In this document: piece by piece, positions 28,547 to 29,614 of the stretch
Layout: the number at the start of each line of letters is the position of its first letter
Position numbering within the stretch: the stretch's first letter is position 1
Assembly (NCBI RefSeq): GCF_913773995.1
Contig: NZ_CAJYES010000208.1
Span: forward strand, 1-32,051
DNA length: 32,051 nucleotides
Reading direction: 5' to 3'
Origin: an uncultured Pseudacidovorax sp.
Lineage (GTDB): Bacteria > Pseudomonadota > Gammaproteobacteria > Burkholderiales > Burkholderiaceae_C
Position numbers and translations under genes: made by a program
Notes under the pieces: generated by a model
Told to the model about the DNA's origin: nothing
What the model saw: the letters and a program-made list of their open reading frames with translations, nothing else
Databases searched by the model: none

Positions 28547-29614
28547 TCAGGCCACGACTACCGCGGCGCCGTTGCCGCGCTCTGCGATGGTGCCGATCTC
28601 GTGCACCGTCTCGCCCTGCGCACGCAGCGTGGCAGCGCAGGCCTCGGCGTCGGCCGCGGCGACCACCACCACCATGCCGATGCCGTTGTTGAAGGTACGG
28701 TTCATCTCGATGTCGTCGATGCCGGCCACCTTCTGCAGCCAGGCGAACAGTTCGGTCTGCGGCCAGCTGCCCTTGGTGAGGTGGGCGGCGGTGCCTTCCG
28801 GCAGCACGCGCGGAATGTTCTCCAGCAGGCCGCCGCCGGTGATGTGGGCCAGGGCCTTGATGCCGCCGTCGCCCGCCTCGCCGCCGTGCGGATGCGCGGC
28901 CAGCGCCGCCAGCACCGGCTTGACGTACAGACGGGTGGGCGCCATCACGGCCTCGCGGAAGGGCTGGCCATCGAGCGTGGACGGCAGGTCGGCGCCCGCG
29001 CGCTCGATCACCTTGCGCACCAGCGAGAAGCCGTTGGAATGCACACCATGCGAGGCCAGGCCCAGCACCACGTCGCCGGGCTTCACGTTCTGGCCGGTGA
29101 GGATCTTCGACTTCTCGACCGCGCCGACGGCAAAGCCGGCCAGGTCGTATTCGCCGGCGGGGTACATGCCGGGCATCTCGGCCGTCTCGCCGCCGATCAG
29201 CGCGCAGCCCGACAGTTCGCAGCCGCGGGCGATGCCGCCGACCACGCGGGCCGCGGTGTCCACGTCCAGCTTGCCGCAGGCGAAGTAGTCGAGGAAGAAC
29301 AGCGGCTAGGCGCCCTGCACCAGCACGTCGTTGACGCTCATGGCCACCAGGTCGATGCCCACGGTGTCGTGCATCTGCCATTCGAAGGCCAGCTTGAGCT
29401 TGGTGCCGACGCCGTCGGTGCCGGAGACCAGCACCGGCTCTTTGTAGCGCTTCGGTACCTCGAACAGGGCGCCGAAGCCGCCGATGCCGGCCAGCACGCC
29501 TTCTCGCATGGTCTTCTTCGCGAGCGGCTTGATGCGGTCGACCAGCGCGTCCCCCGCGTCGATGTCGACGCCGGCGTCCTTGTAGCTGAGGGGGGTGGAG
29601 GAGGGCGAGGTCAT
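28547..29614 (-). pseudogene. purM: Phosphoribosylformylglycinamidine cyclo-ligase with one in-frame amber codon
   Basis: PurM closes the imidazole ring of AIR in de novo purine synthesis. The frame, read through one TAG, encodes 355 residues against about 345 in E. coli and is otherwise intact: YKDAGVDIDAGDALVDRIKPL, GIGGFGALFEVP, VSGTDGVGTKLKLAF, then MSVNDVLVQGA-stop-PLFFLDYFACGKLD, GGETAEMPGMY, SNGFSLVRKV, APTRLYVK, HITGGGLLENIPRVLP and NNGIGMVVVV. The stop (29306-29308) stands where the conserved motif GAEPLFFLDY has Glu, so it is a single GAG-to-TAG change at codon 103. Without suppression the product would be 102 residues and inactive. No frameshift exists. Sequencing error is the simplest explanation, but a real null or a suppressed codon cannot be excluded. 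Confidence 0.92.

What the first reader, a model, noticed from the sequence alone, without database searches (positions are those of the whole stretch)
29306..29308. Single in-frame amber codon replaces a conserved Glu in purM
Seen directly: the minus-strand frame from 29614 to 28547 is continuous except for one TAG at codon 103, between QGA and PLFFLDYF. PurM proteins carry Glu there (GAEPLFFLDY), so it is one G-to-T change from GAG. Everything on both sides is well conserved with no second lesion, so any mutation is very recent or the base is an error. None of the 29 complete genes in the window ends in TAG (27 TGA, 2 TAA), so this is the only in-frame TAG in a recognised gene. If real, options are purine auxotrophy, amber suppression, or a second purM.
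Basis: partly seen in the sequence, partly recalled or inferred. Interest (0 to 1): 0.75.

Follow-up and report, generated by a model that had tools for sequence, protein, structure and literature searches.

The report
Premature stop codon in bacterial purM
The purine-synthesis gene purM of this draft genome carries a single stop codon in its middle, most simply a very recent loss-of-function mutation or a one-base sequencing error rather than a new way of reading the genetic code.

Summary
In detail: the only purM found in this 261-contig draft is interrupted by one in-frame TAG at codon 103 (29306-29308, minus strand), with conserved coding sequence on both sides. All 14 congeneric genomes held have an uninterrupted purM, and 93 of 94 other purM loci have a Glu codon there. 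Exotic readings do not fit. RF1 is intact. Of 547 other ORFs called in a 0.66-Mb sample, 49 end in TAG, so TAG is an ordinary stop here. None of 41 tRNA genes has a CUA anticodon, though at least four expected tRNAs were not seen. In purM only 2 amino-acid-level changes, one being the stop, are unique to this genome, against 25 silent ones, so the lesion is very young or a base error. If real, the cell makes a 102-residue fragment, lacks AIR synthetase and should need purine plus thiamine. Reads, which I could not see, decide between mutation and error. Ordinary; low interest.

The parts
28547..29614 (-). purM (AIR synthetase) reading frame, interrupted once; only purM found in the held contigs
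   Evidence: (TIGR00878 424.6 bits, 1 TAG inside)
29306..29308 (-). in-frame TAG, codon 103, where 93 of 94 other loci carry a Glu codon
29309..29614 (-). N-terminal piece, 102 aa; ends within the AIRS N-terminal domain (profile 14-52 of 112)
28547..29305 (-). downstream remainder: rest of the AIRS domain (54-112 of 112) and AIRS_C; first possible restart GTG at 29261-29263, 15 codons after the stop
27472..28527 (-). next gene downstream, probably an AI-2E family permease (label recalled, not searched); could suffer polarity
29775..30458 (+). divergent neighbour, Hda/DnaA-like (label recalled, not searched)

Best explanation
A very recent nonsense mutation inactivates the only purM found in this strain. 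RF1 ends translation at UAG after 102 residues (inferred), inside the first half of the AIRS domain; the remainder lacks the N-terminal part of that domain. Without AIR synthetase, FGAM is not turned into AIR, so de novo purine synthesis, and the AIR-derived part of thiamine, should be blocked (established pathway knowledge). The strain would live on purines and thiamine from its medium or habitat. Shown here: the stop, one purM in the held contigs, intact purM in relatives, intact RF1 and ordinary use of TAG as a stop. Inferred: that the base is real, and the phenotype.
For: One purM, with one TAG; 14 of 14 congeners uninterrupted; Glu codon in 93 of 94 other purM loci; stop splits the AIRS domain; prfA over cut-off with no stop; 49 of 547 other called ORFs end in TAG; 25 silent against 2 non-silent codon changes (one the stop) unique to G000 in purM. 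Over 19 of 27 window genes the G000-unique non-silent to silent ratio is 62/431 = 0.14, within the 0.10-0.23 of three relatives, so the window is not visibly error-ridden. Published precedents: a purM Gln34-to-TAG variant in Akkermansia (PMC11804010, passages) and strict adenine auxotrophy of purM deletions in Burkholderia cenocepacia (PMC13055311, abstract).
Against: No reads, second strain or phenotype. No other sign of decay in purM, and purH and purD are intact, so nothing independent says that the pathway is out of use. purL cannot be judged: its N-terminal half lies in an assembly gap. The ratio test cannot exclude a single base error.
Confidence: 0.5

Rival explanations
1. One-base sequencing or assembly error; the organism's purM is intact and ordinary.
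For: Lone substitution in a gene under full constraint; a draft of 261 contigs with a gap inside a core gene, purL; all 14 congeners held are intact.
Against: No clear excess of G000-unique amino-acid changes in the window; no other clear case of an interrupted gene in the 657,692-base sample, within the limited sensitivity of the scan, so errors of this kind are not obviously common in this assembly.
Confidence: 0.42
2. TAG is read through as an amino acid, by an amber suppressor tRNA or local recoding, so full-length PurM is made.
For: The downstream frame is constrained. The tRNA set is incomplete: Cys, Ile(GAU), Ala(UGC) and Leu(UAA) were not seen, so an unassembled suppressor is not strictly excluded. 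The 40 codons after TAG-ended genes look slightly more coding than after TGA-ended ones (means -12.2 and -17.4, Mann-Whitney p 0.048).
Against: No CUA anticodon among 41 tRNA genes; the one hit of a CUA-loop pattern is tRNA-Arg(UCU); RF1 intact; 49 other called ORFs end in TAG. Seven of these are followed by coding-like sequence in the same frame: in six a new start lies within 13 codons, and in the seventh another stop follows after 12 codons. None of 94 other purM loci has a stop inside the aligned part.
Confidence: 0.04
3. An intact second purM, or another route to AIR, hides in an unassembled piece or mobile element, so this copy is free to decay.
For: A part of purL about 1.9 kb long is missing between two contig ends, and the smallest contigs among those whose lengths I saw are just over 3 kb, so small contigs may be absent.
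Against: None found in the 5.37 Mb held; each of 14 congeners has exactly one purM hit over the cut-off; no relaxed selection in this copy.
Confidence: 0.04

Closest known systems
purM nonsense variant of Akkermansia muciniphila selected by penicillin (PMC11804010, passages seen)
   Same: single-base change to TAG early in purM, expected loss of AIR synthetase
   Different: there the change arose in variants selected in culture; here neither reads nor any selection are known, and the codon and species differ
purM deletion mutants of Burkholderia cenocepacia (PMC13055311, abstract seen)
   Same: loss of the orthologous enzyme in a beta-proteobacterium, giving adenine auxotrophy
   Different: engineered deletion; here a single stop codon of unproven reality
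Amber codon reassignment or suppressor systems (recalled)
   Same: in-frame TAG inside a conserved gene
   Different: no CUA tRNA seen, RF1 present, TAG used as an ordinary stop, purM the only clear interrupted gene in the sample

Membership tests
AIR synthetase PurM (TIGR00878) | full-length match above the curated cut-off | tested here: met
   424.6 bits (cut-off 236.35) over positions 1-331 of 332, with one TAG inside; the best PDB PurM chains matched over nearly the whole length with X at the stop
AIR synthetase PurM (TIGR00878) | uninterrupted reading frame | tested here: not met
   TAG at codon 103
Pseudogene by recent nonsense mutation | orthologues intact and a single disabling change | tested here: met
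   14 of 14 congeners intact; one stop in the frame
Pseudogene by recent nonsense mutation | stop present in the real DNA | not testable with these tools
   no reads or second isolate available
Amber reassignment or suppression | tRNA with CUA anticodon | tested here: inconclusive
   0 of 41 tRNA genes, but the set is incomplete
Amber reassignment or suppression | TAG avoided as a gene end, RF1 lost or changed | tested here: not met
   49 of 547 other called ORFs end in TAG; prfA matches over its cut-off without stops
Amber reassignment or suppression | in-frame TAG in many genes or conserved in relatives | tested here: not met
   purM is the only clear case in a sample of 548 called ORFs (sensitivity); no stop in 14 congeners

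The most novel reading that the evidence does not exclude
A strain-specific amber suppressor, in an unassembled part of the genome, reads this TAG and keeps PurM active while TAG still ends some 9% of genes, so purine synthesis would depend on suppression efficiency.
Probability: 0.03. Interest if true: 0.6.

Novelty: already known. Interest (0 to 1): 0.12.

Why it matters
If real, the strain is a purine (and thiamine) auxotroph, which matters for growing it and for metabolic models built from its genome. If an error, it is a warning against inferring auxotrophy or recoding from one base of a draft assembly. Neither changes general understanding.

Tried and rejected
Genome-wide TAG reassignment: rejected. 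Second purM: not found in the held contigs; the only other family hit, G000:C87 at 24.1 bits, lies in an ORF that reads like ThiL (label recalled, not searched). Suppressor tRNA: the single pattern hit is tRNA-Arg(UCU); the reversed control pattern hit 20 and 19 times. Pathway decay: purH and purD intact. purL looked broken, but C65 ends inside the gene and C97 starts about 50 bases beyond the missing N-terminal segment, so it shows nothing either way. The empty search had no control genome, as its output says; its query came from G009, where one search had found a full-length purL.

Two first attempts at statistical gene finding were discarded: one search did not find the purM stop, and the model had learned an antisense frame. 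The retrained caller finds it. Sensitivity: 1211 of 1431 interior codons pass its two-sided coding test, and 447 of 1431 also lack a start codon within 11 codons, so a lesion just before a chance start could be mistaken for a gene boundary. The same scan of 320,000 bases of relatives gave 10 stops, one of which (L194:17873) also has no start within 11 codons; the same stop context recurs in L190 and L193, so I read it as a gene end. The family-wide search (399 genomes, 14 without a match at its threshold) printed only part of its rows; the printed rows show no stop, the unprinted ones were not seen. Paper searches on oxidation artefacts, amber suppressors and draft-genome pseudogenes were seen as listings only, except PMC8954436 (abstract: UAG ends 7.4% in E. 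coli W3110).

Full report
What is there. On the minus strand, the frame 29614-28547 encodes PurM (AIR synthetase) with one interruption, TAG at 29306-29308, codon 103. With X at the stop it matches the best PurM chains of the PDB over nearly the whole length; in chain 9jzw (E. coli, as I recall) the aligned residue is Glu, position 101 counted from the printed alignment. The stop cuts the AIRS N-terminal domain: profile positions 14-52 lie before it and 54-112 after it, and AIRS_C follows. The window is the whole contig C208 of a 5.37-Mb, 261-contig genome given as 99.99% complete.

Is it more than chance. A codon-usage model scores the 40 codons before and after the stop at 31.3 and 27.2. After 415 TGA-ended genes the mean is -17.4 (sd 13.9), and after 43 other TAG-ended genes -12.2 (sd 15.6). 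Scanning 657,692 bases of this genome (39 stretches, 548 called ORFs, purM counted as two) gave 21 stops with same-frame coding signal on both sides: 18 TGA, 2 TAG, 1 TAA. In 20 of these the next start codon lies within 11 codons, as expected for neighbouring genes; purM, at 15 codons, is the exception. The same scan of 320,000 bases of relatives gave 10, one of them without a near start. The test passes 1211 of 1431 interior codons, but only 447 of 1431 also lack a start codon within 11 codons, so it would miss some lesions.

Relatives. The 14 other genomes of the genus that are held have an uninterrupted purM. Of 94 purM loci other than this one (14 congeners and the 80 best loci), 93 have GAG (67) or GAA (26) at this codon and one (L093, a Sutterella MAG) has AAG; none has a stop in the aligned part. 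Against the closest relative purM (L009, 95.7% DNA identity) there are 41 silent codon differences and 5 others, the stop included. In a comparison with three relatives the changes unique to G000 in purM are 25 silent and 2 not silent, one of which is the stop. Over the 19 of 27 window genes that could be compared (5949 codons), G000 has 431 silent and 62 others (ratio 0.14), and the three relatives have ratios of 0.12, 0.23 and 0.10. So purM has been under constraint for nearly all of its history, and the window is not visibly rich in errors, though a single error cannot be excluded.

Is TAG something else here. Stop use among the 548 called ORFs is TGA 473, TAG 50 (one being the purM fragment) and TAA 25. 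Seven other TAG-ended ORFs are followed by coding-like sequence in the same frame; in six a new start lies within 13 codons, and in the seventh another stop follows after 12 codons. RF1 (prfA) scores above its cut-off without stops. The RF00005 search gave 41 tRNA genes; ARAGORN names all of them and none has a CUA anticodon. The catalogue lacks Cys, Ile(GAU), Ala(UGC) and Leu(UAA) tRNAs, which I expect in such a bacterium, so it is incomplete. A pattern for a CUA loop hit once, in tRNA-Arg(UCU). Result against my reading: sequence after TAG-ended genes looks slightly more coding than after TGA-ended ones (p 0.048).

Rest of the pathway. purH and purD are intact. purL is represented only by its C-terminal half, because contig C65 ends inside it; the N-terminal half was not found in the held contigs, and contig C97 begins about 50 bases beyond the missing segment. 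I read this as an assembly gap; purL cannot be judged.

Mechanism. RF1 recognises UAG and releases a 102-residue fragment (inferred). Without AIR synthetase neither purines nor, from established knowledge of the pathway, the AIR-derived pyrimidine of thiamine can be made. A purM deletion in a related beta-proteobacterium is a strict adenine auxotroph (PMC13055311, abstract), and a TAG change early in purM arose under penicillin in Akkermansia (PMC11804010, passages). Such losses are therefore known and can be tolerated when purines are supplied.

Verdict. A single nonsense change in the only purM found: either a recent real mutation (0.50) or a base error (0.42). Suppression, recoding or a hidden second purM are unlikely. 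Reads decide. Nothing here is a new kind of system.

Noticed in passing
L210:3761-3878 (G000:C65, end of contig): purL of this genome has at its contig end an 88-base stretch that matches its own reverse complement at 86%, in frame, where two relatives (G009, G013) have ordinary linker sequence; shorter similar stretches lie at the end of contig C16 (L157:3126-3248), in C35 (L169:5173-5210) and in a relative (L182:259-292). It may be a palindromic element inside a coding gene, or an assembly end artefact.
   Followed up: partly
G000 sample of 39 stretches against 16 stretches of five relatives: TAG ends 49 of 547 called ORFs in this genome's sample but 8 of 283 in relatives' stretches (Fisher p 0.0007). 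Many of the relatives' stretches are orthologous to each other and to the window region, so this may be regional; the window itself has none besides purM.
   Followed up: partly
L093 (Sutterella sp. UBA1442): The only one of 94 other purM loci without a Glu codon here: AAG, and the following Pro is also replaced.
   Followed up: no
family-wide purM search: Of 385 family genomes with a match at E <= 1e-40 only 237 pass the TIGR00878 cut-off; many of the rest score near 1e-48, perhaps because an insertion splits the match.
   Followed up: no
L169:5389-5483 (G000:C35): A selenocysteine tRNA is present, with a 38-base stretch resembling the palindromic element about 180 bases away.
   Followed up: no
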